A stretch of 28,975 nt of DNA, taken from positions 1 through 28,975 of the IMG/VR virus record IMGVR_UViG_3300021519_000047. One strand, given 5' to 3'. A program made the translations under genes and the position numbers. Positions 9,258-27,807 of this stretch are shown here, piece after piece. Numbering within the stretch: position 1 is the first letter of the stretch; each line of letters begins with the position of its first letter. The notes beneath the pieces were generated by a model that ran no database searches, was not told the DNA's origin, and saw only the letters and a list, made by a program, of their open reading frames with translations. This stretch comes from a virus.

Positions 9258-9297
9258 CCTACAATTAGCAAATAGTTCTATTTCTAATGTCCCATCT

Positions 9298-9312
9298 GCT
9301 CATGTTTTGAGC
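9298..9312 (+). other. Hairpin in the capsid mRNA leader
   Basis: GCTCA (9298-9302), a TGTTT loop and TGAGC (9308-9312) form a short perfect hairpin, followed after AACG by six T. It lies in the roughly 97-base leader between control site C and the capsid ATG. It may stabilise the abundant capsid mRNA or act as a weak attenuator; no known riboswitch pattern was recognised. Confidence 0.4.
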
Positions 9313-9359
9313 AACGTTTTTTCCTACGGTTGTTGGAGTTAACTTTTAACTTCAAAAAA

Positions 9360-10418
9360 ATGGCAAATTTTACAGCTTCTAACCTAGTCGCAGCACAGAC
9401 TACACTAGCGGAGCAATTCACAAAACCCGAAATGCGTGAAAAGGTATTACCTACCGTTGCATTGGGTATCAAAAACAAAAACATTCTTGTAAAAGGAGCA
9501 GAAAACCTCCGCACAAGGGAAGATAGGGCAGTTTATGGCTACATGATGAAACGTCAGAGCCGCACTCCTGCATCTCAACGTTCTGCAACACATACCGGAC
9601 CTAGCGGTGATTCAATCCAACAGACGTTCACATGGGTTACTTATGCTGATTCATTCCAGATTTCACTGAAAGAAATGGATAATAACATTTTCACTTTCAA
9701 TGAGGCAATGGCACAGAATATTAAAAACTGTATTCTGAATATCCATGCGCAGATTGAAACTGATAACATTGCTGCTTTGCTTGCCGCAAAGAATCAGATA
9801 GTGAAAACTACTACTCCCGTTGGTACGCAGGTTACATGGAATGCGGCAAACTTCGTACATGAAATTTCAAATGCTGGATATGGTAAACAGTTCACACAGC
9901 TTGCAAAAGCCGTAATGACAGCCAACTACTATAACAGCGGTGTATTTGATGCAGTGTTTGACCTTGCAACCTACAACAACGCACAGTATTGGATGTCGCA
10001 GGGTGCAGGTAACGCCGTAAATACAGCGTTCCAGTTTACAGGCATGGAAATTGCACCATCGGTTGAACTTTCTGATGCAAACTACCCAACGGGCGTTGCG
10101 CTTGTAATGCAACCCGGTACTTTCGCAAACATACAGTGGATTCCAAAACAGAACAGGGAAGGACATGGCGATTATATGTCTTACCTCGGTGGTTACGGTT
10201 CTATTGTTGACCCGATTACAAACCCCGGCGGTATCTATTCAGGTGGACTTGTTTTTGCCGTACATGGTTACGCATTACGTCAGGACACTTCGGCTACCAA
10301 CGGTGTTGCACAGGATGATATGATGCAGTTTGAGATTTCAGTGGATAACGCATTTGCTTTATCTCCTTTCTCTACTGCTAACGAAAGTGTTGTTTACGAA
10401 TTTGGCTTAGTTCCTTAA
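9360..10418 (+). CDS. Major capsid protein
   Basis: 352 residues from the ATG at 9360, which follows the A-rich leader CTTCAAAAAA. A TTG 30 bases upstream would extend the frame but is less likely. The call rests on position after terS, terL, portal and scaffold, on a dedicated promoter and leader, and on the sequence style. That comprises an N-terminal arm, a charged loop with RTREDRAVYGYMMKRQSR, a central helix, and an extended glycine-rich loop near the C-terminus (DYMSYLGGYGSIVDPITNPG) before the final beta strands. This is compatible with an HK97-type fold, but the fold needs a structure prediction. No pro-domain cleavage site is evident. Confidence 0.78.
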   Translation: MANFTASNLVAAQTTLAEQFTKPEMREKVLPTVALGIKNKNILVKGAENLRTREDRAVYGYMMKRQSRTPASQRSATHTGPSGDSIQQTFTWVTYADSFQISLKEMDNNIFTFNEAMAQNIKNCILNIHAQIETDNIAALLAAKNQIVKTTTPVGTQVTWNAANFVHEISNAGYGKQFTQLAKAVMTANYYNSGVFDAVFDLATYNNAQYWMSQGAGNAVNTAFQFTGMEIAPSVELSDANYPTGVALVMQPGTFANIQWIPKQNREGHGDYMSYLGGYGSIVDPITNPGGIYSGGLVFAVHGYALRQDTSATNGVAQDDMMQFEISVDNAFALSPFSTANESVVYEFGLVP

Positions 10419-12264: not shown

Positions 12265-13212
12265 ATGGCTAATGTAACACTACCATACCCGTATGAGATA
12301 GATTGGTGGGTGCAAACTCTCCAAACAAGAGTATGGGAACAGGTAATAAAAAGAGTGTGGGGGTGTAACGATAGCAATTACAACAGTTACGGAAGGGCAT
12401 ACAGGAATAGAGTAACAAGAGGTGAGGGTGGGAGTAAAGGTTACATACCTGAATTTTATAACCCTAATACTAGGAACTATGATGCAGGTTTCGGCAAAAA
12501 TGTAATGGGTGGAATGTTCTTTGACGACAGGGTAGCGGGATTATCATACTTCGGTTTGGTTGACCCGATAAAGCGGATGGAAACAGGCTATCACATGGCT
12601 AAATTCCAATGGTTGTTTTTTGTTAATCTAAGCAAGATAACACCTGCGGGAATTAGTAGTGCAAGTAACCAACGTCTTGATGAAGTTTGTGTAAATGATA
12701 TACGCAACTTCTTACAGTGGAATGGTTGCGGTTTTACCGTAACAGGGATTGTAAAAGACGTTGATACGGTACTTGAAAGGTATAGCGGTCAATCTAAAAT
12801 AGAAAGTTTGTCAGACGATATGCACCCGAAGTTTTGTTTCCGAATTGACATGGAACTTATCTACGACCCAAACCAACATACTGCGCAACCGATTAAACAA
12901 CTTTTACCAATGCAGATTTCACCTGTATTCTATATAAAAACAATACCGAATTTAGCGAATGTTATTTCGGTAGGCAACGGAAGATACATTTATGCCGAGT
13001 ATGGAGAAGGTAACACATTTACCCCTCTTTACACAGATACAAATTTATCTTTCTTAGCAGGGAAAAATGTTACAGTACCGTTCTTTAAAAATGATGCACC
13101 AATAACATTACCTAACTACAATGTAGGCACAGGAACATGGACAGTAGCGGGCGCACCATTTGGGTTTAATGACGGGGATTATATTACAATGGAGATTACA
13201 AATTATGTTTAA
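12265..13212 (+). CDS. Hypothetical structural protein (neck or tail region)
   Basis: 315 residues, aromatic-rich at the start (YPYEIDWWVQTLQTRVWEQV). The middle has IDMELIYDPNQHTAQPIKQL and the C-terminal third is beta-rich (TLPNYNVGTGTWTVAG). The protein is probably soluble and structural. No family recognised. Three bases separate it from the Ig-domain protein, so the two probably act together. A head-tail connector or tail completion role is a positional guess. Confidence 0.6.
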   Translation: MANVTLPYPYEIDWWVQTLQTRVWEQVIKRVWGCNDSNYNSYGRAYRNRVTRGEGGSKGYIPEFYNPNTRNYDAGFGKNVMGGMFFDDRVAGLSYFGLVDPIKRMETGYHMAKFQWLFFVNLSKITPAGISSASNQRLDEVCVNDIRNFLQWNGCGFTVTGIVKDVDTVLERYSGQSKIESLSDDMHPKFCFRIDMELIYDPNQHTAQPIKQLLPMQISPVFYIKTIPNLANVISVGNGRYIYAEYGEGNTFTPLYTDTNLSFLAGKNVTVPFFKNDAPITLPNYNVGTGTWTVAGAPFGFNDGDYITMEITNYV

Positions 13213-13244: not shown

Positions 13245-14276
13245 ATGGACAGCAATGTAAATTTAAACAGTCAAAGCATTATCAGCCAAACAGGTTTGAT
13301 AGGCACATTCCCTGAATTGGGAGTATTTAAAACCATCGTGCTTGTTCCAAAAGGTACGATTATCCCATTGGCGCAGATGGTGGATAATGCCACATTTGCT
13401 ACCTATGTAAACGCTAAATTCATCAACGATACCTACACTTCACAGTGGTTCGGGTTGACAAAGTTGGATGAATTTAAAGACGAAACAGCGGGCGATGAAA
13501 CATGGGATACGGGTATCTACAAAACAAACGTGTACAGCCACCCGAAAATATTTGGTTTCTTGTATCTGCAATCAATGGGTAACTTCATTGAAATTACAGG
13601 GTTCAAAAATGCACAGACCAAATACGATATGTTCATCATTGACGATTTGGGTAACTGGCATGGTACTTTAGACCAAACAGGTCTGAATGGTTTGCAAGCC
13701 TATGACATGATGCAGTTTTGGGTTGGTAATCCAATGCCTCGTACTACAAAGACAGGTTTACAGTTTCCTATCAGGGTTTCACTTGCTTTGCAGAAAGAAA
13801 CAGCCGATTGGTTTAAGGTGTATCAGGCGAATTACAGTGCCGATAATATCACGATGTTGCAGAACGCTACACTTACTGATGTTTCGAGCATTATCGTTCC
13901 CGCAGCACCAACTACGACTATCAGCTTTGTAATGAAGTCAGGACAGGATAGCTACGATTTGGTTCGTGCTTATGGTTCTACGATTATTGCTTTGGGCGCA
14001 CCCGGTTTAGCATTGTTTACCTGCACAAACCTTACTGTTGGTGGTACTGCAATCGGCGCAAACCCAACAAGTATGACAACGGGTAGTAGCGTTGTAGCAG
14101 GAGAAACATACTATTGGATTAAAGCGGTATTATCAGCACCACCTACGGCGGGTAACATTGTAAGGATTTCCCTTGCCGCACCTTCGGTTGTAAATGCTTT
14201 GATACCTAACTTCAATTGTGTTTCACCGTCAATCAACAACGTAAACGGGGCAAATTGTGCTATCCATACATTCTAA
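13245..14276 (+). CDS. Putative tail tube or major tail structural protein
   Basis: 343 residues, beta-rich, without cysteine-rich or membrane segments. Its N-terminal two thirds look like a structural domain (LGVFKTIVLVPKGTIIPLAQ). The last third (about 225-320) is Thr/Gly/Ala-rich and could be a separate Ig-like or decoration domain. It is the last gene before a strong terminator, as expected for an abundant structural protein. The tail-tube call is inference from position; I recognise no family motif. Confidence 0.5.
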   Translation: MDSNVNLNSQSIISQTGLIGTFPELGVFKTIVLVPKGTIIPLAQMVDNATFATYVNAKFINDTYTSQWFGLTKLDEFKDETAGDETWDTGIYKTNVYSHPKIFGFLYLQSMGNFIEITGFKNAQTKYDMFIIDDLGNWHGTLDQTGLNGLQAYDMMQFWVGNPMPRTTKTGLQFPIRVSLALQKETADWFKVYQANYSADNITMLQNATLTDVSSIIVPAAPTTTISFVMKSGQDSYDLVRAYGSTIIALGAPGLALFTCTNLTVGGTAIGANPTSMTTGSSVVAGETYYWIKAVLSAPPTAGNIVRISLAAPSVVNALIPNFNCVSPSINNVNGANCAIHTF

Positions 14277-14327: not shown

Positions 14328-14534
14328 ATGATGCAAATTATTATTTCAGACGAGTATGTAAAGTCTGTATCATTGGAAGATTTCAAGGCGCATTTTGCCG
14401 ATAATGGTTACGATTGGAGTGATACGGATATAGCAGGTTATTGGAAGAAGTTTAACCCAACAGTAAAGGCTAAATCCGCACCTGAACATGACAGCGACAC
14501 AACTAAAGGAGAAACTCATAAGCATAAGAAGTAA
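14328..14534 (+). CDS. Small hypothetical protein
   Basis: 68 residues from the first of two adjacent ATG codons (14328 or 14331). The N-terminal 45 residues could be a small folded domain with a tryptophan-containing helix (WSDTDIAGYWKKFNP). The tail is charged and histidine- and lysine-rich (GETHKHKK). Its last 47 bases overlap the start of the next gene in another frame. No family recognised. Confidence 0.6.
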   Translation: MMQIIISDEYVKSVSLEDFKAHFADNGYDWSDTDIAGYWKKFNPTVKAKSAPEHDSDTTKGETHKHKK

Positions 14535-14928
14535 CGTTGTTACTCTTGCGGGTGAGGCTATGCTTGAAAACAAAGAGCAGATAGTTGGACTTGTCATTAA
14601 TCAGCAACAGGAACAACATGTAGATAGCTATACTCAACCATTGAGGGCATATTCTACACCATACTACAATTACAAGCGATTGTCGGGTAAGTCAGGTGAA
14701 ACGGACTTTGACGATACGGGACACATGCACAGCACAATGGATTTAACCATTGAAGGCGAACAGTATATTATTGATAGTCCTTCGCAGACCAATCAAGGTA
14801 TGTTAAAGAGTGCATTTTTGAGAGAGTGGCAAGGTTCGCCCGTCATGGATTTGACAGAGGACAATAAAGGTGTAGCGTGGAACATTATTGCACCTACGTT
14901 GGTTGCAAAGATGCGTGAAGCGATTTAG
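14488..14928 (+). CDS. Putative tail completion or head-tail joining protein
   Basis: 146 residues from an ATG inside the previous gene. An N-terminal helix is followed by a beta-rich region with YTQPLRAYSTPYYNYKRLSG and DDTGHMHSTMDLTIEGEQYI, ending in a helix (APTLVAKMREAI). Size and position before the tape-measure region fit the tail completion proteins of siphoviruses, although I cannot assign the family. The 47-base overlap with the upstream gene is longer than usual and may reflect coupled translation. Confidence 0.58.
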   Translation: MTATQLKEKLISIRSNVVTLAGEAMLENKEQIVGLVINQQQEQHVDSYTQPLRAYSTPYYNYKRLSGKSGETDFDDTGHMHSTMDLTIEGEQYIIDSPSQTNQGMLKSAFLREWQGSPVMDLTEDNKGVAWNIIAPTLVAKMREAI

Positions 14929-14955: not shown

Positions 14956-15873
14956 ATGAATTTCAAAAAGCCAATATCAGAACGGGCGCAAGCAATAATT
15001 ATGTTATGCCTGATAGCTTTTCTCTTATTAGGTTCGGTTGTATTGTGGATAATTTACCATACATGGTATGCAGGTCTGATACATTGGGTTGTACTTTATT
15101 TTATGGAGTGGGGCGCAAGGGCAAAACAAGACGATTTAAAGCCTCCCGTTTTCTACACCTTGTATAAGTATGCCAAACGTAAATTAATCAAGCCACAGCC
15201 TATTGTAGTGCCTGAAACGCCTATAATTGAGGAACAACCTACGGAAACTGCATTTATCCCAAAAGTTACAAGTATCGCTAAATGGATGGTTGCTGAAATG
15301 ATAGATTGTACCATTTATGGCAATTACAGTTCAATAGGCGAAGGAATGCCCGAACAAATACAGACGGCTTTGCAAATGTTGCTATCTCAATACTATGAGA
15401 ACTGCAATAATGAGTACATGAAATCGTATGTGCATCTGAAAGGGCAGATAATGGCAATTGAGGCGCAATGGGAATTGGTAAATGTTTTGGCTACGTTGAT
15501 GCACGAAAGATACTCACCCGCAGGTGCGGCAGTGTTCAAAAACCTTTATCCATTCGGGCAATACAATTGCACATTCGCTAAAGATACATTTGAAAACGAC
15601 TGGAAACGTGTTTGTGCGGGTGAAATCAGGAACAAACGTAACCATGAGGCATTGACTAAGGAACTTTCCGAAATGGAGAAGGAACAAGCCAAAAGCGACA
15701 AACTTACTCCCGAAAACAGGCATAAGAATCTGATTAACCGATTGATGGATATTAACAAGACCGAGGGCGTTAGGTACGACATAAATACCATGACGGTACT
15801 TGAATTGGCAATAGCAGAAAACAGGTTGAATCAGCATATCAAGAATTTGCAGGAACAGATAGCGAAAAAATAA
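14956..15873 (+). CDS. Membrane-anchored protein before the tape measure; possible tail assembly chaperone
   Basis: 305 residues. A transmembrane helix spans about residues 13-35 (IIMLCLIAFLLLGSVVLWII) and a second hydrophobic stretch about 38-50. A proline-rich linker (about 75-95) leads to a helical soluble domain (about 100-305) with paired segments and a charged coiled-coil-like end (LTKELSEMEKEQAKSDKL). Tail assembly chaperones normally occupy this position immediately before the tape measure, often with a programmed frameshift. No suitable slippery heptamer in the right frame was found at its end. A membrane anchor is unusual for a chaperone, so a different role is possible. It ends 3 bases before the next ATG. 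Confidence 0.5.
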   Translation: MNFKKPISERAQAIIMLCLIAFLLLGSVVLWIIYHTWYAGLIHWVVLYFMEWGARAKQDDLKPPVFYTLYKYAKRKLIKPQPIVVPETPIIEEQPTETAFIPKVTSIAKWMVAEMIDCTIYGNYSSIGEGMPEQIQTALQMLLSQYYENCNNEYMKSYVHLKGQIMAIEAQWELVNVLATLMHERYSPAGAAVFKNLYPFGQYNCTFAKDTFENDWKRVCAGEIRNKRNHEALTKELSEMEKEQAKSDKLTPENRHKNLINRLMDINKTEGVRYDINTMTVLELAIAENRLNQHIKNLQEQIAKK

Positions 15874-15876
15874 GTA

Positions 15877-18800
15877 ATGGCAGAGATTTTAGAGATACTC
15901 GACAAAGGGCAGATACTTACCGATATAGATGCGGTTATAGTTGAGATTGCTAAATTAGAAGAAGCCATTACGAAAGCTAGTAACAAACTACTTACTGTTA
16001 AGGTTGAACTATACGGGGCAGAATCGTTGCAAGATGTTTTGGAGGGAACAAATGCCATTCGTAAAGCAATGGTTGATTTGGGTATTGTACAAAAACAAAA
16101 CGCTGATTTAGTTGCAAACCTGAATGAGAATTATGGAATGTTGGGTAAGTCTTTCGACCAAGCGTTAGAAGATTATGCACAACTAAAAATACAGCTTACC
16201 GTTTTAAATGATAAAATCGCACAGCAGAACGCATTGCTTTTAAAAGGCGGTGTAGATGCTGAAAAAGCGGCGGCGGCACTTGAACCATTAATACAACAGC
16301 AACGTAAATTAGGAATTGAGGTTACTAATGCCAACAACATTATCAATAAATCCATTGATGAAAGATTAGCAAAAGAGCAGGCGGCGGCAGAAAAATCAAG
16401 GATTGCTGAAATAGATAAAACTAATGCCTTAAAGGTAGAGGGCGAAAAACGCATTGCGGCAATAAATAAAGAACAACAGCAAAAAGAAAAAGCATATCAG
16501 CAAGAGGAATTAAGGGAAATAAAAAGAGTTCAACAGGCAACCACTGCGGCACAAAAGATTGTAGATGCAAATTCAGCTATTTACAATTCTGTTTCAGGGC
16601 TTCGTGCAAAAATGGTTGAATTGCAGTTAGCGGGTGAGGGTTTAAGCCAAGAGTATTTGATATTGGCTGAAAGGGCAAATGCCTTAACCGTAGCAAATCA
16701 AAAGGTTAATAATGCAGTTGCTAATCCCGCAGGTCTTGGGGCACACATTCAATCCACTAAAAGCGGCGGTGCGACTGAAACTACGGCTGAATTAAGTGCA
16801 GAAGATGCCGCACTTGCTCGTATTAATGCCCGTATTGAACAATCCGTAGCGGAAGAAAATGCGTTGGCAGATGCTAAGTATAAGGATTTAGCAGTAACGG
16901 AACAATTAAATACTGCAAATGTTAATAGTAATAGAATAGCGAAAAGTAGCGGAGCACAAATACAAATCTTGCAGTCAAATCTTGCAGGGTTACAATCCGA
17001 ACAGGCAAAACATAAGCAAGGTACGGCAGTTTGGAAACAATATGAAACGGCAATCGTTAATACCAAAGGGCAGTTACAAAAATTAGGTGTTGAAACAGCG
17101 AATGTTGCTCCAAAGGTTGAAAAGACCGCAGAGGCATTTAAGGTTATGGGTGTAAATGTTGAATCAATGATGGCTCGTATGATTTTGCGCATGGTTGCAT
17201 TTCAACTTTTGTTTACTCCTATTGTTGCTGGTTTAACATCTGTTTATGAATGGGTAACTAAATTAGATGAAGCTACCCAAAAATCATTGGATAGACTTAA
17301 AGATTATTTCAGTGATTTTGATGCTTTGCAAAATAAATATAAAAATTCAGGTGCGATAACAAGTGCTAAAATACAAATAGACCAAGAAAACGCAGAAAGG
17401 TTACTTTCTCAAATGATGGACAAAACAAACTTCTCATTCGAAGAAAGATTTAATAAATATAATGAATTACAATCGGCTTATCCAAAAATATTTGACAACA
17501 TGGATAAGGAGAATTTTAAAATGAATGAAGGTAATGAAAGAATGAAATTGCAAGTAAAAAATGCAAATGAATACATATCAGTTCTTAAAAATCTTGAAGA
17601 CCAAAAGGAGAAAAACATAGAGGCTACAACCTTGCAAAATACTGTAAGTGAAAAAATTACAGAACAAGAAAATAAAATAGTTGCGGCAATTAAAAGTAGA
17701 ATTGCGGCTAATAGTGATATGGATGCGCAGGACAAGCTATTTTATAATAGACCTGAAACTATGGGGCAACTTAGAAAAATGGATAACAAGCAATTGTTAA
17801 ACTATTCTATGGGTCTTACAAGTGAAACTGATAAAACGGCAACACATGGTAAATCTGATTTAGAAGACCAAATTCGTATAATGAATACATTAAAAAAGCA
17901 ATTTAATGAATTAACGGATGCAGAAGTAGATGCGGCGGTAAAACAAGATGAACTTGAAAGAAAGAAAACTCATTTAGAGGGTAAAACTAAAGACGGTAAA
18001 CCCAAGAAGGACAACGCCAAAGGTCTTGAAGCGGAGTTAGCGGCAGAAAAGGAACATTTTAAAATACGTCAGGAGTTAGACCAAAAAGAGTATGACGAAA
18101 GTCGTAAAACATTTACCGAACAGCAAATATTTGATGAACGTAAAAAAGAGGCGGCATTAGAACATGCTACCGAAATGCTATCTATCATTGAAAAGTATCA
18201 TGGTAAGGTAGGCGAAAGTGAGGCGAGATATACTGCAAGAAAAGCGCAGGTTACAGCAGACCAATTTGCAATAGATAACGCCGCAAATGAGGATGAAAAA
18301 AAGATAGCAAAAGAAATTCAGGACAGGCATATTAAAGCGGGCGAGGATATTGATAAGCTGATTAAAAAACTTTCAGATGAAAGGGATAAGATTAGGGATA
18401 TTGATAGAGAGATTGAAGAAATAAACGCCGCCGCACTTGCACATAAGCAAAGGGCAAACGGTATCAGTCCTTATTTAGAGGCATTGGGTTACGATGCTGA
18501 TTTTCAGGAAAATATGGATGCTTTTGACCGTCAGATAAAAGCGGCGGAGGGTAAACGTGCTGATTTATACGATAAATTAAGTACGGCTATATCTAGCGGT
18601 AAGGGTACGGAAGTAGGTGCAGTTCAGGGTGAAATTGCAGGTTCAAATAAAGACATTGCACAATTAGAAGCTGATAAACAAAAAGCCATTGACGATAAAA
18701 AGATTCAGGCTAAAAAGGAGTCGGCAGAAAAAGCAATTGAACTTGCTAAAACAACGTGGGATGCCATAAAGCAAATTCAGGAACAACAGTTCGCATGGGA

Positions 18801-19548
18801 ACAAAGGCAGTTGGATATTAAAATGGAACAGGTGCGTTTGGAGGCAGAACAAAAGATGCAAGCCATTGACGCTACGGCAGGTTTTCAAATTGATAAAGAC
18901 AATCAGAAAGCAAAAGTAGCGGCGCAAACTGCATCAGAAGAAAAGGACATTCAGGCTAAATCAAACGCATTAAAATTACGTCAGGCAAGGTTTGAGAAAG
19001 AGAGTGCAGAATTAACAATTATTGTCAATACGTCAAGTGCTATTATAAAGACTATTCAGGCTTATGCAAGCATACCGGGCGGCATGGCTATTGCGGCTCC
19101 CATCATTGCGTTAGAGGCGGCTATCGGTGCGGCTCAATATGCAGTAGCGGCAAGTCAACCATTACCACAGTTTGAGGATGGGGGCGTTACGGCTACCTCA
19201 CACTTCATTGCGGCAGAGGGGAATAAACCCGAATTGATTATTGCGCCGTCAGGCGATGTTTCGATTGCGAGTAAGGAAGGTGTTTATACTGCGCCTATTG
19301 GCTCAACAGTAAAGAACGCAAGCGATACTGAAAAACTACTGAAATACGCTATAAACGGTATTGGTATAAATGGTATGTCGATGGGTATGCTTATGGAACA
19401 GCGTACCAAGCAAATGACTGATAAACGCATAGTTGAAGAATTACAAGACGTTAAAGCTGAAATTATCCGTTCAGCTTATATCGGTAGGGTTATAAATAAC
19501 AACGTAGTGATAAAGGGTAACGATTTACAAAGACCAACTAGGAACTAA
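15877..19548 (+). CDS. Tape measure protein
   Basis: 1223 residues, the longest protein in the window. The N-terminal 430 residues are long alanine- and glutamine-rich coiled coils. A hydrophobic segment occupies about residues 435-460 (MILRMVAFQLLFTPIVAGLT). More coiled coil follows to about 1040. A second hydrophobic, glycine- and alanine-rich segment at about 1059-1093 (IPGGMAIAAPIIALEAAIGA) precedes a C-terminal domain with FEDGGVTATSHFIAAEGNKP. That ending is typical of tape measures in Bacteroidetes phages and prophages. At about 0.15 nm per residue the tail would be near 180 nm. Such proteins set tail length and help DNA enter the cell. The stop is 1 base before the next ATG. Confidence 0.92.
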   Translation: MAEILEILDKGQILTDIDAVIVEIAKLEEAITKASNKLLTVKVELYGAESLQDVLEGTNAIRKAMVDLGIVQKQNADLVANLNENYGMLGKSFDQALEDYAQLKIQLTVLNDKIAQQNALLLKGGVDAEKAAAALEPLIQQQRKLGIEVTNANNIINKSIDERLAKEQAAAEKSRIAEIDKTNALKVEGEKRIAAINKEQQQKEKAYQQEELREIKRVQQATTAAQKIVDANSAIYNSVSGLRAKMVELQLAGEGLSQEYLILAERANALTVANQKVNNAVANPAGLGAHIQSTKSGGATETTAELSAEDAALARINARIEQSVAEENALADAKYKDLAVTEQLNTANVNSNRIAKSSGAQIQILQSNLAGLQSEQAKHKQGTAVWKQYETAIVNTKGQLQKLGVETANVAPKVEKTAEAFKVMGVNVESMMARMILRMVAFQLLFTPIVAGLTSVYEWVTKLDEATQKSLDRLKDYFSDFDALQNKYKNSGAITSAKIQIDQENAERLLSQMMDKTNFSFEERFNKYNELQSAYPKIFDNMDKENFKMNEGNERMKLQVKNANEYISVLKNLEDQKEKNIEATTLQNTVSEKITEQENKIVAAIKSRIAANSDMDAQDKLFYNRPETMGQLRKMDNKQLLNYSMGLTSETDKTATHGKSDLEDQIRIMNTLKKQFNELTDAEVDAAVKQDELERKKTHLEGKTKDGKPKKDNAKGLEAELAAEKEHFKIRQELDQKEYDESRKTFTEQQIFDERKKEAALEHATEMLSIIEKYHGKVGESEARYTARKAQVTADQFAIDNAANEDEKKIAKEIQDRHIKAGEDIDKLIKKLSDERDKIRDIDREIEEINAAALAHKQRANGISPYLEALGYDADFQENMDAFDRQIKAAEGKRADLYDKLSTAISSGKGTEVGAVQGEIAGSNKDIAQLEADKQKAIDDKKIQAKKESAEKAIELAKTTWDAIKQIQEQQFAWEQRQLDIKMEQVRLEAEQKMQAIDATAGFQIDKDNQKAKVAAQTASEEKDIQAKSNALKLRQARFEKESAELTIIVNTSSAIIKTIQAYASIPGGMAIAAPIIALEAAIGAAQYAVAASQPLPQFEDGGVTATSHFIAAEGNKPELIIAPSGDVSIASKEGVYTAPIGSTVKNASDTEKLLKYAINGIGINGMSMGMLMEQRTKQMTDKRIVEELQDVKAEIIRSAYIGRVINNNVVIKGNDLQRPTRN

Positions 19549-19549
19549 T

Positions 19550-22246
19550 ATGGCATTTGACGGGCAGTTAAAAATGAGTATTCAAGATAAGGCAGGTAAT
19601 TACTACTTTGCTTCGCAGGATAGTAGCGGGGTATGGAGCGTAGGTACTTCGCCTTCATTACTATACATAAATACTTTGCCTGATGGTTGGAACGAAACGC
19701 AGATAACCTATGAGCGTGATGGTTCTTACATGGGTATTTTCCGTTCGCAAACTAATTCACCGTATAAATTCAGCAAAGACGCAAGGGCAATAATTACGGA
19801 AATACGCAAAGTTCAAGGCATACAGGGTTACGGGTTACTTAGCATCTACTTATTCAATACGTCAACATTTGTTTATGATACGTTCTATCAGTCTGAATTA
19901 GATTTCAAGACTTACAAAAACAACATGCAAACATGGATTTGTGAGATAGGAACATTAGATAGTAAGGGAGTTAGAGATTTACACGCTTACGGCGACCAAA
20001 TGTTTAACTTTCCAATTTGGCAAAAAGATAGTTCAGGCGGGTGGATTCCATACTATAATAACATTTGGGTAGTTGACGATGGTGTTAAGTTGCTGTATAA
20101 TGCCACATACATAAGTTCAGCAAGCAAAGACAACCCATTAGATTATCGTGCCAATACTTACACAAGTGGGTTAGGTATGTTAGGGTTTAATTTAGGTAGA
20201 TGGTCAACGCCTTATGGTTCATTCCACACATTGCCAAACCTTACAGAGTTTAACATTGTTCAAAATAATGGCACTACAACTTACATTGGTAATGATATTC
20301 TTTCAAATCTTTTAAGGCAAGGGAATCAAGGTTGCGGATTGCACCCAGTTAATGAAAGTATATTTAATTCAATAAACGATAGTCAGCCCTACACTAAAAA
20401 TAATTACAGCCTTAAAAACGCTTGTGTAGTACCACCTTCTACATTTGAATTACAGGTAGCGGTTAGCGGTAATTTTGACCCATTAGCGACTATTGCAGGT
20501 ACTCCATATACAGGAATATCGGTAGCGACAGACGGAACGGGAGGCGCACCAAATACAGGTAGATTCATTGCATTTGTGCTATTTGAAATCAACAATCAAA
20601 ACTTACCACAAGTTGATGGTTTTGGCAACTATTTATATCAGACAGTATTGAAATACCCGTTGCCCGATGTCGTAGACCATTATTTTCCACCATTCGGCGG
20701 TGCATTTGACAACTATTCTACTCCTGTTACCATCACAATAAATCAGGACAAGGTTTATACATTTGGCATTATCTTAGACAGTATTTGGGGTCAGGCGGCG
20801 GCTAATAGTGCAGGGTTTGTTTTGCAGTCTTTGCAGTTTTCCATATTTTCAAATTATGATTACGGAGAACTAACCGTTACTCACCCTACACCACATGGCA
20901 TACCTGCACCACAATTAAACCCAACAGTTTACGCCGCTTATCGTGGACATCAGTTATTTGAACTTGCAACACAATATTTAGCAAGTAGAACAAGTAACGA
21001 TTACGGTTTTCCCATTGTTCCACCAAATGATTACACTTTTGCAAGCACCTATTTATCAGACTCATCATATCCATTAGTGGGTGATGGCAGACCATATCAA
21101 ACGGCTATTACTTCGGAATACTGCATACATGATTTGCAGGGTCAGTCGTACATATCATTATCATTTAATCAGATTTTCGACTTTTATAAAAAAGTTTGGG
21201 GATGTGGATTGTCTGTAATCGGAGATAATTTTGTAGTGGAAAATCTACGTTATTTCTTTGACAATACAACAATGATTTTGGACTTAGGTTATGATGTTGC
21301 CGAGTTTGAAATAATGCAGGAAGTTGACGGGGTGGGTGCAAATTTAAGGCTAGGTTATAGCAAGGCAGATACTAATACCGATTTTGGTGTAGATAGCTTT
21401 ATTACCGACTTGTATTTTAATACACCTGCGTCAAATGTACCTACCGTAATGGATTACATGGAATCGGGAATTACCTGCGACCAATACCAAAAGGAAAAAG
21501 CGAGGGCGCAAAGAGTTAATCAGCCAGTAGGCACAGCATTTGACCCCGCAAACCCATCAAGTAACAATAGGGCATTTGCGGTTTACATCGCTGAATCAAC
21601 AGCACCGTTTGTTTTACCTAATCCACCTGATTATCCTTTTCAGCCTTACGACCCGTCAAACACTCCCGTTGCAGTTGTCCCGTATCAGATTGAAATGTAT
21701 AACGGCAGTATCTTACCTTATGCGCAGGCATCAGACCCAACGGCGGCAACAGCACCTTATATAAATGGTCTTTACTACCCAGATACAGCGCAGAATGTAA
21801 AACTTAGTCCCGCAAGGGCGTTACAACGTGATACAGGTGCGTTAATCCATTCGGTATTGGATAATATGGATAGTGATAGTTTAGCGTTCAGGGCAACAGG
21901 AATAATGCAGAAAACGAATGAGGTTTTGGACTTGACAGGTATTGAAACTAATTTGGTTACAGGCGGCAGTGGTACAGTTACAAAAGAAATGTCGGATAAA
22001 GTTATCGGAGATTTACCAGCGCAGTTATTCAAGCCAATAACGGTTAAAGTGAAAAGTAAGTACCCTATCAATATGTACACTATTTTGAACACAAACCCGA
22101 ATGGCTATGTGCGTTTCTTTTGGGCGAAAGAAGGCGGGTTTGGTTATGATGAATACAGGTTCTTTATAACAAAGGCTATTCAGGCGGCGGGCAATGGCAT
22201 GGCTACCGAGTTTTACGGAAAACTAACGCCTGATATGGTTATTTAA
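19550..22246 (+). CDS. Large tail protein after the tape measure (tail tip or baseplate hub)
   Basis: 898 residues, mostly beta-structured. It begins MAFDGQLKMSIQDKAGNYYF and contains many aromatic and asparagine-rich strands, with a middle region around GQAAANSAGFVLQSLQFSIF. The C-terminal end has KPITVKVKSKYPINMYTILN and a domain ending GMATEFYGKLTPDMVI. Proteins in this position form the tail tip, including distal tail and hub proteins. Size and order support that role, but no catalytic or family motif is recognised, so the exact part is unknown. Its last 8 bases overlap the stop end of the leftward lipoprotein gene. Confidence 0.6.
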   Translation: MAFDGQLKMSIQDKAGNYYFASQDSSGVWSVGTSPSLLYINTLPDGWNETQITYERDGSYMGIFRSQTNSPYKFSKDARAIITEIRKVQGIQGYGLLSIYLFNTSTFVYDTFYQSELDFKTYKNNMQTWICEIGTLDSKGVRDLHAYGDQMFNFPIWQKDSSGGWIPYYNNIWVVDDGVKLLYNATYISSASKDNPLDYRANTYTSGLGMLGFNLGRWSTPYGSFHTLPNLTEFNIVQNNGTTTYIGNDILSNLLRQGNQGCGLHPVNESIFNSINDSQPYTKNNYSLKNACVVPPSTFELQVAVSGNFDPLATIAGTPYTGISVATDGTGGAPNTGRFIAFVLFEINNQNLPQVDGFGNYLYQTVLKYPLPDVVDHYFPPFGGAFDNYSTPVTITINQDKVYTFGIILDSIWGQAAANSAGFVLQSLQFSIFSNYDYGELTVTHPTPHGIPAPQLNPTVYAAYRGHQLFELATQYLASRTSNDYGFPIVPPNDYTFASTYLSDSSYPLVGDGRPYQTAITSEYCIHDLQGQSYISLSFNQIFDFYKKVWGCGLSVIGDNFVVENLRYFFDNTTMILDLGYDVAEFEIMQEVDGVGANLRLGYSKADTNTDFGVDSFITDLYFNTPASNVPTVMDYMESGITCDQYQKEKARAQRVNQPVGTAFDPANPSSNNRAFAVYIAESTAPFVLPNPPDYPFQPYDPSNTPVAVVPYQIEMYNGSILPYAQASDPTAATAPYINGLYYPDTAQNVKLSPARALQRDTGALIHSVLDNMDSDSLAFRATGIMQKTNEVLDLTGIETNLVTGGSGTVTKEMSDKVIGDLPAQLFKPITVKVKSKYPINMYTILNTNPNGYVRFFWAKEGGFGYDEYRFFITKAIQAAGNGMATEFYGKLTPDMVI

Positions 22247-22457
22247 CAAAGGTGCAAACTGGATGCGTGTATGGGTGGTGAATTTGGTAGGAATCTATTT
22301 GTGATTGATAAAGGTTACAAATAGTATCAGACCCTAAAGAGGTGGCATAATTTGGGTTGTAATAAATGCAGTACCAACAACCAAAAGTATTAGGAGTTTC
22401 TGATTTATTTTTGTTGCACCCGATAGATAAAACGAGTAAAAGCAGTAGATATTTCAT
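22239..22457 (-). CDS. Small lipoprotein on the opposite strand (moron-like)
   Basis: 72 residues from the ATG at 22455-22457. It has a lipoprotein signal peptide: MKYLLLLLVLSIG and then C14, a lipobox of the L-S-I-G-C kind common in Bacteroidetes. The mature part is short, hydrophilic and cysteine-containing (FGCWYC and later single cysteines), so disulfides are likely in the periplasm or at the cell surface. It lies tail-to-tail with the large tail gene and head-to-head with the next tail gene, filling an otherwise unexplained 248-base gap. A degenerate leftward -7 box (TACTATTG, complement of 22471-22478) lies just upstream. Lone inverted genes in late phage blocks are often morons expressed in lysogens. 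Superinfection exclusion by membrane lipoproteins is known in other phages, but here it is only an inference. Confidence 0.62.
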   Translation of the reverse strand: MKYLLLLLVLSIGCNKNKSETPNTFGCWYCIYYNPNYATSLGSDTICNLYQSQIDSYQIHHPYTHPVCTFVK

Positions 22458-22494
22458 AGTTGAATTTTCACAATAGTACGAATAAATTTTAAAC

Positions 22495-23580
22495 ATGAAC
22501 GCAATTACAATCAAGTCGGCTTTAAATTCGGTGTATTTTGGCGACCCAACAGGAATACCGATATTAGGGCAAGCACCTTTTGGACGGCAAATACAGCGTT
22601 GGCAAGACGATAGTAGCTATGTGCAAAAGTTTCAGTTTTCCGATGCCATAACGTTGCAGTTCCATATCCAATATGATGCGGGGGCGGCTTTACCCGCTTT
22701 GTACATTTGCGACAGATACGACCCACATACGGGTAAATTTCACGTTGTAGGCGCACCTGCTGATAATAGCTTAGTTGGTGGTACTTATGACTTCAATACC
22801 GTTTATGGTTCAGGAGCAGGTTTATATTGCAAGGGAACGCAAGTTATATCGGGGAACAACTACTACAATCCATTTGACGGAACAACAACGCCTCTATTAA
22901 CCGTTACCTACTCATTTTCCTGCAACGATATAGGATTATCTACAAAGGGAACATATTATTTTCTATTTGTCAATCAAAGTTTACACCCAACAGTAAATAA
23001 CTACTTATGGAGTGAGCCTGTTTATTTTACCGATATTCTGCCATATACCATATTGATTAATAGCCAGTATAATAGCAATAAATCGGGGAATATCAACACA
23101 TATATTGCGTTGTGGAATACTGATGATGGTATATTGATAAATCATTATTACCCAACTTTTAATGTGCGGGTTGAGGGATATTTGATACCTGAAAATCCAA
23201 AAGGGATAAATGTGGGCTACTTGCAACAGGCTTACGACCAACAGCAGATTATGGCTTTGTTCAAGCGAATGAAAAAGCTATGTATCGGTGAAATATCGCA
23301 GGGAATACCCGATTATTTGCTCGAAACGGTTACTTCGGCTATAATAGCGGATAGCTTTTGGATAGACAAGCCAAATAATAGTTTTATCATTTTCAACCCA
23401 TCCGCACAAACTTCACTAACTGATATATGGAAATTAAAGCGCAATGATGCATATGCTTTGGTTACGGGGTCGTGTATTTTGATGCAACGTTATGACGGTC
23501 AAAACGCCATTGTAACGCCTACACCTGCAACGCCTTATGCAAGGGTTTATGATGCAGTTTACGATGCAACCTACTCATAA
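22495..23580 (+). CDS. Hypothetical tail structural protein
   Basis: 361 residues from the ATG at 22495. It is beta-rich with many aromatic residues and asparagines (YLQQAYDQQQIMALFKRM is its clearest helix). The last third ends with TPTPATPYARVYDAVYDATY. No signal peptide, no catalytic motif, no recognised family. Between the tail-tip protein and the fibre-region genes it is probably a baseplate or tail-tip component. It is the last gene before control site D. Confidence 0.6.
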   Translation: MNAITIKSALNSVYFGDPTGIPILGQAPFGRQIQRWQDDSSYVQKFQFSDAITLQFHIQYDAGAALPALYICDRYDPHTGKFHVVGAPADNSLVGGTYDFNTVYGSGAGLYCKGTQVISGNNYYNPFDGTTTPLLTVTYSFSCNDIGLSTKGTYYFLFVNQSLHPTVNNYLWSEPVYFTDILPYTILINSQYNSNKSGNINTYIALWNTDDGILINHYYPTFNVRVEGYLIPENPKGINVGYLQQAYDQQQIMALFKRMKKLCIGEISQGIPDYLLETVTSAIIADSFWIDKPNNSFIIFNPSAQTSLTDIWKLKRNDAYALVTGSCILMQRYDGQNAIVTPTPATPYARVYDAVYDATYS

Positions 23581-24693: not shown

Positions 24694-27600
24694 ATGGGTA
24701 AGTATATAAAAATACTGATTGCAATTATATTTACTGCATTTTCCGCTAATGGGCAGGTGATAGTGAATAACGGCAATACAAATGAACTAATAAGGCACAA
24801 CGGGGGTTATACTACATTGCGGTATTTTACTCCCCCTATGTCGTACAATCCGTATTCTGCTTATTCTAAATTCGGAATGATTTGGTTTGATAGTTCAGCT
24901 ACACAGCGTTTATGGTATTTTGACGGGTACAGGCAAAGACAAGTATCAGATAAAAGCTATGTTGATAGTGTAGTATTGGCTATCGGTACAGGAACAGTTT
25001 TAAGTGTAACAGGCGGTACTAATATATCAGTAACGGGTACACCAACAGTTAACCCGATTATAAACCTTAGTGGGAATATTCCTGTTACTAATTTAAACGG
25101 TGGTACTTCTGCATCGGCTACAACTTATTGGCGTGGTGATGGTGTATGGTCAACTCCCGCAGGTGCAGGTACGGTTACTTCGGTTGCAAGCGGTTGGGGA
25201 ACTAATTTCAGCACTATTACGGGTGCGGGAACGGTGGTGGCTGATAGTTACGCAGTGGCATCACGAAACAGGCTACAAAAGAATGTGGATAGCTTAGACG
25301 TACTTATAGCGGGTAAACAACCGTCTTTAGGTTATACGCCTGAAAACGTGGCAAATAAGGCTACGACATTTGGAACTTTGAATAATACTTTGTACCCTAC
25401 AACTGCGGCGGTGAACACATGGGGTAATACTAACTTTCAGCCTATTGGTAGTTATTGGACTTATGCAGATACGGTTAACGGAGTAAGCACAAGGTCATGG
25501 AGGCAAAAAGGCGTAGATTCTATTACTACAAAATTTTATCCTAATACTAATCCTAATGGTTACATATCTTCTTATATTGTTGATAGCAATACGTTTTCTA
25601 CTCGGAACTGGAGACAGAAACTAGGCGATAGTTTAAATATAAGTATAGCCACAAAATTAAAGATTACTGATACTGCAAGTAAATGGCTTAATCCTACTTT
25701 AGCTTCTCAAACATATCAGGCAATTGGGGATTACCCAACTAAAACTTATCTTCATAGCGTAGACGATAGTTCATCTGTATTAAAAGTATCTAAAATAGAT
25801 AGCAATACGTTGGGTGGATACGTCAGCTACTATTACGCATCGACAACATTTGGTAGTTCTGGTAAAGCAGAGTACTTTTTTACAGATACAGCAAGTTCAA
25901 TATCTACATATAAGGTTGCGGCTAATCCATACGTTGTTGGCCCAGAGGCTTACGTTACAGATGCCTCTCCTGCTACTTCTAATATTATACAATCTTGGGC
26001 AACTATAGTTAATCTTCCTAACTTAACATATATACCTGCTGGAATATGGGGAGTACATTTTCACGCATACAAAACTGGAGGAACAAAAACAGTTGCAATC
26101 TATTGCAATATATATAAACGTAATCTGGCTGGAACAGAAACTCTTTTAGGTACAACATCTTTATCTATACCATTAACTGCCATCGAAGTAGATATGCCAG
26201 AAATGCAGATTTATATAGACCAAACGATTTTACTTGCAACAGATAGGATTGTAGTTAAACTTGTTGAAAGCATAACTGGTGGAGGCTCTTCCCCATCGTC
26301 TATTACTGTAGGATATGGAAATAATACTAGCGCGAGAATAAGCATTCCAGCTCAATCTGTAGTAGTTAATAATTTTGTACCTTATTCTGGAGCGACATCG
26401 TTACTAGATTTAGGCAGTTATGGATTAAAAACAACTGGCGATATAGGATTAACTGGAGCTAGAGTAGCAAATATATATACTACTAATATGGCAGTAACAA
26501 ATACGATTACTGGTAGTGTAAATGGAACATCTGCTAATATTACTGGAAATCTTGCTATAGGTAATTTAAATAGTGGAACGAGCGCATCTTCTTCTACATT
26601 TTGGAGAGGAGATGGCACATGGTCTACTCCTACTGGCACAGGAACTGTAACAAACGTGATAGGAGGTACTAATATTGCGATTACTGGTACGTCAACAATT
26701 CAACCAACGGTAAATATTACAGGCACAATAGCAGTTGCAAATGGTGGAACGGGTACAACTGCGACAACCTCAGTAAATACTACTCCGATTACTTATGGGT
26801 CGGATAATACGGTAACGGCAAGCGCAAATACACTTACTACAACTTCTCTTAATCCTACTGTTGTAAATAGTTCTCTAACTAAAGTTGGAACAATAGCAAC
26901 TGGTGTATGGAATGGAACAGCAATTGCAGATGCTTATATATCATCAGGAACTAACTGGAATACGGCATACACCAATAGGATAACCAGCCTAACAACAACA
27001 GGGAGTAGTGGTGCATCTACACTAAGTAGCAATACATTGAATATCCCAACATATACGTTAAGTGGGTTGGGTGGATTATCTACAACTACATCTGTAAATG
27101 CAACTGCATTATCGTCAGGGGCGAATGTTACAGTAACTGCATCAGCTAATACATTAACTACTACTACCTTGAACCCAACCGTTGTTACATCCTCATTGAC
27201 AAGTGTAGGAACGATAGGAACAGGAACGTGGCAAGGTACGGTAGTTAATCCTACATATGGCGGAACAGGCGTTAATAACGGCAGTAATACCATCACAGTA
27301 GCGGGTAATTTAGTTCATGCAGGAGCGTTTGCGTGTACTGTAAATGCAACAGCATCTACTAACGTAACATTACCTACTTCGGGTACTTTATATGGAACTG
27401 CATCAGGTAGTATTACTTCTTCGCAGTTACAAACATCATTGAGTGATGAAACAGGAACAGGGTTAATCGTCGGCAACAACAAACCGACATTCTTAGGAAC
27501 GATTCAAACTATATCAACTGTTTCTGCACAGGCTTTTGATGGTAGTTTAGGTAATATGTTTACTAGAACATTAGCCGCATCTGAAACATTTACACAATCT

Positions 27601-27807
27601 AACTTTAGTACGGGTCAAAACTTTATCGTTAGAGTTAAGCAAGGTAGCGGAACGACTTATACTGTTACATGGTGGAGTGGGGTAACATGGATAACTTCGG
27701 GGGCAACTGCACCTGTTCAAACAACAGTTACAAACGGATTTACTACATATGGATTTACCTGCACAGGTTCAAATACATTTGACGGTTATCTTATAGCAAC
27801 GCAATAA
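24694..27807 (+). CDS. Long repetitive tail fibre with a signal peptide and mosaic modules
   Basis: 1037 residues. A signal peptide (MGKYIKILIAIIFTAFSANG, cleavage before Q21) starts the protein. The rest is Gly/Thr/Ser-rich fibre sequence with repeated units. WRGDG(V/T)WSTP appears twice (residues about 146-155 and 639-648), and a longer repeat covers 26770-26930 and 27091-27240. A middle module (about 25860-26400) begins YFFTDTASSISTYK and contains PAGIWGVHFHAYKTGGTKTV and VPYSGATSLLDLGS, a pattern I recall in other mosaic phage fibres. In that module arginine is often AGA and glycine GGA, unlike the first third, which suggests later acquisition. The C-terminal 80 residues are a different, tryptophan-containing beta domain, probably the receptor-binding tip. 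Confidence 0.78.
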   Translation: MGKYIKILIAIIFTAFSANGQVIVNNGNTNELIRHNGGYTTLRYFTPPMSYNPYSAYSKFGMIWFDSSATQRLWYFDGYRQRQVSDKSYVDSVVLAIGTGTVLSVTGGTNISVTGTPTVNPIINLSGNIPVTNLNGGTSASATTYWRGDGVWSTPAGAGTVTSVASGWGTNFSTITGAGTVVADSYAVASRNRLQKNVDSLDVLIAGKQPSLGYTPENVANKATTFGTLNNTLYPTTAAVNTWGNTNFQPIGSYWTYADTVNGVSTRSWRQKGVDSITTKFYPNTNPNGYISSYIVDSNTFSTRNWRQKLGDSLNISIATKLKITDTASKWLNPTLASQTYQAIGDYPTKTYLHSVDDSSSVLKVSKIDSNTLGGYVSYYYASTTFGSSGKAEYFFTDTASSISTYKVAANPYVVGPEAYVTDASPATSNIIQSWATIVNLPNLTYIPAGIWGVHFHAYKTGGTKTVAIYCNIYKRNLAGTETLLGTTSLSIPLTAIEVDMPEMQIYIDQTILLATDRIVVKLVESITGGGSSPSSITVGYGNNTSARISIPAQSVVVNNFVPYSGATSLLDLGSYGLKTTGDIGLTGARVANIYTTNMAVTNTITGSVNGTSANITGNLAIGNLNSGTSASSSTFWRGDGTWSTPTGTGTVTNVIGGTNIAITGTSTIQPTVNITGTIAVANGGTGTTATTSVNTTPITYGSDNTVTASANTLTTTSLNPTVVNSSLTKVGTIATGVWNGTAIADAYISSGTNWNTAYTNRITSLTTTGSSGASTLSSNTLNIPTYTLSGLGGLSTTTSVNATALSSGANVTVTASANTLTTTTLNPTVVTSSLTSVGTIGTGTWQGTVVNPTYGGTGVNNGSNTITVAGNLVHAGAFACTVNATASTNVTLPTSGTLYGTASGSITSSQLQTSLSDETGTGLIVGNNKPTFLGTIQTISTVSAQAFDGSLGNMFTRTLAASETFTQSNFSTGQNFIVRVKQGSGTTYTVTWWSGVTWITSGATAPVQTTVTNGFTTYGFTCTGSNTFDGYLIATQ
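26770..27240 (+). repeat. Two-copy internal repeat of the fibre gene
   Basis: Bases 26770-26930 and 27091-27240 encode the same pattern twice: SVN(T/A)T, then TVTASANTLTTT(S/T)LNPTVV, then SSLT-x-VGTI-x-TG-x-W-x-GT. The copies are diverged at the DNA level, so they are old or under diversifying change. They probably build repeated shaft segments. Confidence 0.75.

What the first reader, a model, noticed from the sequence alone, without database searches (positions are those of the whole stretch)
22239..22457. Inverted lipoprotein gene inserted in the tail operon
A 72-residue protein with a clear lipoprotein signal and several cysteines lies alone on the minus strand in the 248-base gap between two tail genes. 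No rightward gene occupies this gap. This is the classical arrangement of a moron. Phage lipoproteins of this kind can block superinfection or change the host surface. I do not recognise the mature part as a known family.
Basis: partly seen in the sequence, partly recalled or inferred. Interest (0 to 1): 0.62.

Follow-up and report, generated by a model that had tools for sequence, protein, structure and literature searches.

The report
Phage lipoprotein paired with tail gene
A small reverse-strand gene in this uncultured Bacteroidota phage encodes a membrane-anchored lipoprotein; every examined close relative has such a gene in the same place, and its working part was swapped together with the neighbouring tail gene, which suggests that it blocks the phage's own receptor on infected cells as T5 Llp does in E. 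coli.

Summary
A 72-aa lipoprotein (MKYLLLLLVLSIG|C...) is encoded leftward at 22239-22457, tail-to-tail with the 898-aa tail gene that follows the tape-measure gene. It is the only lipoprotein-like ORF in the window. Seven distinct junctions of this phage group, found by tail-gene homology in viral contigs and MAGs, all carry a leftward lipoprotein gene here (39-164 aa). Five of them form one divergent family of about 150 aa. Five of seven also have an exact Bacteroidota -7 element upstream, four a full promoter.

The closest full relative (L003; near-identical fragment L002) is 97-99% identical in several upstream proteins and 90% in the two proteins to the right. Between them lies a replaced block holding the tape-measure tail end, the whole 898-aa tail gene (36% identity) and the mature part of the lipoprotein (unrelated). 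The signal peptide plus promoter region (60 bp) is 100% identical. Tail gene and mature lipoprotein therefore changed together, as in T5 versus BF23.

Best reading: an Llp/Cor/Rtp45-like receptor-blocking superinfection-exclusion lipoprotein, here in uncultured Bacteroidota phages. Receptor blocking is inferred, not shown. The mature sequence has no known relative, and structure predictions were too poor to use.

The parts
22239..22457 (-). Lipoprotein gene, 72 aa (stop codon included)
   Evidence: translation; leftward lipoprotein ORF at the same junction in six other loci
22419..22457 (-). Signal peptide, codons 1-13 (MKYLLLLLVLSIG); Cys14 at 22416-22418 is the predicted lipidated residue
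   Evidence: read from the sequence; rule-based scan; no signal-peptide program was available
22242..22418 (-). Mature part, 59 aa with four cysteines besides the lipidated one; no known relative
22427..22486 (-). 60-bp block 100% identical to L003: 29 bases upstream of the start plus codons 1-10
   Evidence: blastn, alignment
22471..22478 (-). TACTATTG, promoter-like -7 element one fixed base off the Bacteroidota consensus TAnnTTTG
   Evidence: exact elements in five relatives at comparable distance
19550..22246 (+). 898-aa tail gene directly after the tape-measure gene; probable hub or tail-tip protein, exchanged together with the mature lipoprotein
   Evidence: PHROG virion structural protein E 4e-15; 36% identity to L003 between well conserved flanks
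19456..22426 (.). Block without DNA similarity to L003 apart from one 42-bp match (20260-20301)
22495..23580 (+). 361-aa gene to the right, 90% identical to L003; homologues (26-29%) at the same place in L021, L023, L024

Best explanation
The gene makes a small lipoprotein that is exported and lipidated at Cys14, probably ending in the outer membrane. There its short mature part would bind the same host surface protein that the phage's tail tip uses, and stop further virions from attaching to or entering the infected cell and its debris. It would be a receptor-blocking superinfection-exclusion lipoprotein working like T5 Llp, Cor and Rtp45. Its working part is matched to, and inherited with, the adjacent 898-aa tail gene. 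Shown here: the ORF and lipobox, synteny in seven junctions, promoters in relatives, and joint replacement with the tail gene in one close pair. Inferred: outer-membrane location, receptor binding, blocking, and the host-recognition role of the 898-aa protein.
For: Lipoprotein ORF at the same place and orientation in 7 of 7 junctions. Promoters of Bacteroidota type upstream in relatives: 4 of 7 full, 0 of 2000 shuffled sets as many. Window versus L003: flanks 90-99% at protein level (the probable major tail protein 84%), but the tail gene 36% and the mature lipoprotein unrelated, with the joint inside the signal peptide. The same pattern is published for T5 versus BF23, whose receptor-binding proteins are only distantly related and whose Llp proteins have no homology yet each blocks its own receptor (PMC4728585). 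T5 llp lies on the opposite strand next to oad and its mature part has 62 residues. Coliphage exclusion lipoproteins sit directly downstream of the tail-tip gene (PMC9586334; PMC8594841), and structures show how Llp and Rtp45 block receptors.
Against: No sequence similarity to T5 Llp or to any known protein. The 898-aa protein is not proven to bind a receptor, and its predicted model is too poor to use. The coupling rests on one pair of close phages. The tape-measure middle and the fibre C-terminus also differ in that pair, so other tail parts could set specificity. Relatives carry unrelated, longer mature parts. The window has only an imperfect promoter match.
Confidence: 0.55

Rival explanations
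1. An ordinary moron: a lipoprotein that changes the host surface or the lysogen's fitness in a way unrelated to the phage's own receptor. The junction is merely a tolerated landing site at the end of a transcription block.
For: Gene on the opposite strand with own promoter in relatives; further small leftward genes of varied kind share the junction in L003, L021 and L024; mature parts differ widely.
Against: Always a lipoprotein next to this tail gene in seven junctions, and the mature part changed together with that gene; a free landing site should sometimes be empty or hold other genes only.
Confidence: 0.25
2. An outer-membrane spanin used at lysis: a small lipoprotein that joins an inner-membrane partner to disrupt the outer membrane.
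For: Small size; the L003 allele gives a non-significant hit to an Rz-like spanin family (E 0.14); small membrane proteins are encoded nearby in L003 and L024.
Against: Five relatives have mature parts of 128-148 aa, unlike short outer spanins; no partner gene at the junction of the window; linkage to a tail gene is not expected for a lysis protein.
Confidence: 0.08
3. A structural or assembly role: the lipoprotein ends up in the virion tip or helps the tail protein.
For: Joint exchange with the tail gene would also fit a physical partner.
Against: A lipoprotein signal sends the product out of the cytoplasm where tails are assembled; opposite strand and own promoters in relatives argue for separate timing.
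Confidence: 0.05
4. The window and L003 ORFs are remnants of a longer lipoprotein gene and no longer functional.
For: They are much shorter than the about 150-aa family and show no significant match to its profile (55 of 500 shuffles score as well as the window protein, 7 of 500 for L003). The L003 ORF runs into the end of the tail gene.
Against: The promoter and signal-peptide block is 60/60 identical where flanking aligned DNA is 82-94% identical. A lipobox is kept in both alleles although the sequence there differs (SIGC, CGAC). Four extra cysteines in the window allele suggest a disulfide-stabilised small domain.
Confidence: 0.07

Closest known systems
Llp of phage T5 and its BF23 counterpart
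   Same: Small lipoprotein (62-aa mature part in T5, 59 here), gene on the opposite strand adjacent to a tail gene; lipoprotein and tail-gene alleles replaced together between close phages.
   Different: No sequence similarity to T5 Llp; llp is head-to-head with oad while here the two genes are tail-to-tail; the receptor and the exclusion activity are unknown here; Bacteroidota and not enterobacterial phages.
Cor and Rtp45 lipoproteins of T1-like and other small siphophages
   Same: Exclusion lipoproteins recognised by their place directly downstream of the tail-tip gene, with alleles matching the receptor (PMC9586334, PMC12685063, PMC8594841).
   Different: Not compared by sequence here; the tail gene is not shown to be a gpJ homologue; leftward orientation here.
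Prophage morons in general
   Same: Autonomous gene on the opposite strand inside a structural gene cluster, with its own promoter in relatives.
   Different: Present in all close relatives examined and genetically coupled to the neighbouring tail gene.

Membership tests
Receptor-blocking superinfection-exclusion lipoproteins (Llp/Cor/Rtp45 kind) | Lipoprotein signal peptide with lipobox cysteine | tested here: met
   lipobox in all seven junctions
Receptor-blocking superinfection-exclusion lipoproteins (Llp/Cor/Rtp45 kind) | Gene adjacent to the tail-tip or receptor-binding gene | tested here: inconclusive
   Adjacent to the gene after the tape measure in seven junctions, but that gene's receptor binding is not shown; model too poor
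Receptor-blocking superinfection-exclusion lipoproteins (Llp/Cor/Rtp45 kind) | Alleles matched to the receptor-binding gene | tested here: met
   One phage pair: mature part and tail gene replaced together; not tested in more pairs
Receptor-blocking superinfection-exclusion lipoproteins (Llp/Cor/Rtp45 kind) | Sequence homology to Llp | tested here: not met
   No alignment with T5 Llp; PMC4728585 says that BF23 Llp also lacks homology to T5 Llp, so this does not define the functional class
Receptor-blocking superinfection-exclusion lipoproteins (Llp/Cor/Rtp45 kind) | Blocks phage adsorption by binding the receptor | not testable with these tools
   needs expression in a host
Moron | Autonomous transcription unit | tested here: inconclusive
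   Full promoters in four relatives, only a near match in the window; no terminator found by the scan
Moron | Present in some and absent from other close relatives | tested here: not met
   Present in all seven junctions
Outer spanin | Paired with an inner-membrane spanin gene in a lysis cassette | tested here: inconclusive
   No partner recognised next to it; only a non-significant hit for the L003 allele; no lysis cassette was searched for elsewhere

The most novel reading that the evidence does not exclude
Uncultured Bacteroidota phages carry a dedicated tail-protein/lipoprotein exclusion module in which a constant promoter and signal peptide serve as a fixed joint onto which different receptor-specific mature domains are recombined together with the matching tail gene. 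It would have arisen independently of the coliphage Llp/Cor proteins and uses a family of about 150-aa lipoproteins plus short variants.
Probability: 0.35. Interest if true: 0.65.

Novelty: new variant of a known kind. Interest (0 to 1): 0.47.

Why it matters
Receptor-blocking lipoproteins are well characterised in E. coli phages. My two searches of the open literature held here found no description of one in phages of Bacteroidota. If right, the position next to the post-tape-measure gene gives a simple rule for finding such proteins in uncultured phages, and the paired alleles could help identify the receptors of phages that cannot be grown.

Tried and rejected
Direct sequence relatives of the 72-aa protein: none in phages, viral contigs, Pfam, PHROGs or PDB, nor convincingly in 395 Bacteroidota-phylum genomes (the best genome hits were E about 0.004 over 35-47 residues, one with stops inside). 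Similarity to T5 Llp: none. AlphaFold of the 898-aa gene (9 sequences, mean pLDDT 49.6) and of the long lipoprotein family (5 sequences, mean pLDDT 43.0) were too poor; the Foldseek list for the first is treated as meaningless. The longer in-frame starts at 22514 (TTG) and 22496 (ATG) were rejected because the shared block and the lipoprotein signal fit the ATG at 22457. A scan with the right-hand gene alignment found no new junctions. Tail-gene searches of isolated phages gave only one weak partial hit. The sigma-70 and terminator scans were uninformative.

Full report
What is there. The window is an IMG/VR virus record of 28,975 bases. Its recognised genes are rightward: terminase, portal, virion structural proteins, a 1223-aa gene (15877-19548) that by size and position is the probable tape measure (inference), then an 898-aa gene (19550-22246) matching a PHROG family of virion structural proteins (E 4e-15), then a 361-aa gene at 22495. 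Between the last two lies a leftward ORF of 72 codons, 22239-22457, whose product starts MKYLLLLLVLSIGC, a clear lipoprotein signal with the lipidated cysteine at 14, followed by 58 residues with four more cysteines. It overlaps the stop end of the 898-aa gene by 8 bases. By a simple rule applied to every ATG in the window it is the only lipoprotein-like ORF, and random sequence gives 0.53 such ORFs per 29 kb.

The same junction in relatives. Homology of the flanking tail genes, not of the lipoprotein, was used to find other copies of the junction. Viral contigs gave L002/L003 (a near-identical pair at this junction, counted once), L007 and L008. Metagenome-assembled genomes gave L021, L023 and L024, two of them named Bacteroidetes and L023 Methylococcaceae, which I take to be a binning error. 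Every one has a leftward lipoprotein ORF at the end of the 898-aa homologue: L003 9123-9242, 39 aa; L007 10634-11083, 149 aa; L008 2535-2990, 151 aa; L021 8628-9095, 155 aa; L023 8649-9143, 164 aa; L024 4246-4680, 144 aa. L005 and L022 end before the junction. The five long ones are one divergent family: each mature part scores 17-34 bits against a profile of the other four, while the best of 500 shuffles scores below 10. The short window and L003 proteins do not join it by sequence.

Own promoters. The Bacteroidota promoter (TTG, 17-23 bases, TAnnTTTG; the consensus is my own knowledge, and one search lists papers that mention it) lies within 100 bases upstream of the leftward gene or gene pair in four of seven junctions, and the -7 element alone in a fifth. 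In 2000 shuffled sets none reached four full promoters (mean 0.13). The window and L003 have TACTATTG, one fixed base off, at the matching place; no full promoter was found there. In L021 and L024 a second small leftward ORF lies upstream of the lipoprotein gene, and L003 also has one further upstream.

Coupled replacement. The window and L003 are close relatives: 97% (12265-13209), 99% (14488-14925) and 97% (14956-15870) protein identity upstream, 84% in a probable major tail protein (13245-14276) whose first half is nearly identical, and 90%, 90% and 98% (N-terminal 277 residues) in the three proteins to the right. Strong DNA similarity stops at window position 19455, near the end of the probable tape-measure gene. 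Apart from one 42-bp match it resumes at 22427, inside codon 11 of the lipoprotein gene, with 60 bases of perfect identity that cover codons 1-10 and the promoter region; the flanking aligned DNA is 82-94% identical. What differs is therefore the end of the tape measure, the whole 898-aa gene (36% identity), and the mature part of the lipoprotein with the last codons of its signal peptide. Both alleles keep a lipobox cysteine (SIGC, CGAC) although the sequence there differs. The middle of the tape-measure gene is also divergent, so the replaced region may be part of a wider mosaic.

Reading. T5 llp is adjacent to the receptor-binding gene oad, on the opposite strand, and its product has a 62-aa mature part. 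BF23, a close relative of T5, has a distantly related receptor-binding protein and a lipoprotein without homology to that of T5, which blocks its own receptor (PMC4728585). Structures show T5 Llp and Rtp45 bound to the periplasmic side of the receptor, altering outer loops so that the tail protein cannot bind; coliphage exclusion proteins are recognised by their place directly downstream of the tail-tip gene (PMC9586334, PMC12685063, PMC8594841). Position, size, orientation and joint allele exchange here fit that model. I therefore commit to a receptor-blocking exclusion lipoprotein at 0.55. It would work like Llp; membership by homology fails, and the receptor-blocking step is untested.

Limits. 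The coupling argument rests on one phage pair. The 898-aa protein could be a baseplate hub without receptor contact; the predicted model is too weak to tell. The L003 protein is so short that it may be a remnant. A very distant hub-like gene in another genome (L036) has a gene on its own strand next to it and no lipoprotein, so the association is with this phage group and not universal. The host is inferred to be Bacteroidota from two MAG names and the promoter type; no isolate of this group was found among the phage records.

Noticed in passing
window 24694-27807; L003 12203; L008 3077; L021 11579 ORF; L023 10464; L024 8038: The fibre-like protein at the end of the tail cluster starts with what looks like a Sec signal peptide in all six members seen (for example MGKYIKILIAIIFTAFSANGQ, MRPILFALLFICFVAPVMAQ). 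This is odd for a virion protein assembled in the cytoplasm.
   Followed up: partly
L003 9275-9935: About 650 extra bases between the lipoprotein promoter block and the right-hand tail gene, flanked by inverted repeats (9291-9324 with 9887-9920, 88% complementary; 9374-9388 with 9872-9886, 100%), with a leftward 60-aa ORF and a terminator-like hairpin. It is absent from the window.
   Followed up: partly
window 13245-14276: Probable major tail protein: against L003 the first 205 or so residues are nearly identical, while the C-terminal third differs at many positions, suggesting a variable surface domain.
   Followed up: no
window 14956-15873: A 305-aa protein with hydrophobic, membrane-like segments near its N-terminus is encoded directly before the probable tape-measure gene and is 97% conserved in L003.
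   Followed up: no
L024 4683-4907 and 5012-5197; L021 9164-9391: Additional small leftward ORFs (a 74-aa membrane protein, a 61-aa secreted Gly/His-rich peptide, a 75-aa protein) lie in the same junction upstream of the lipoprotein gene, so the junction holds a small leftward gene island in some relatives.
   Followed up: no
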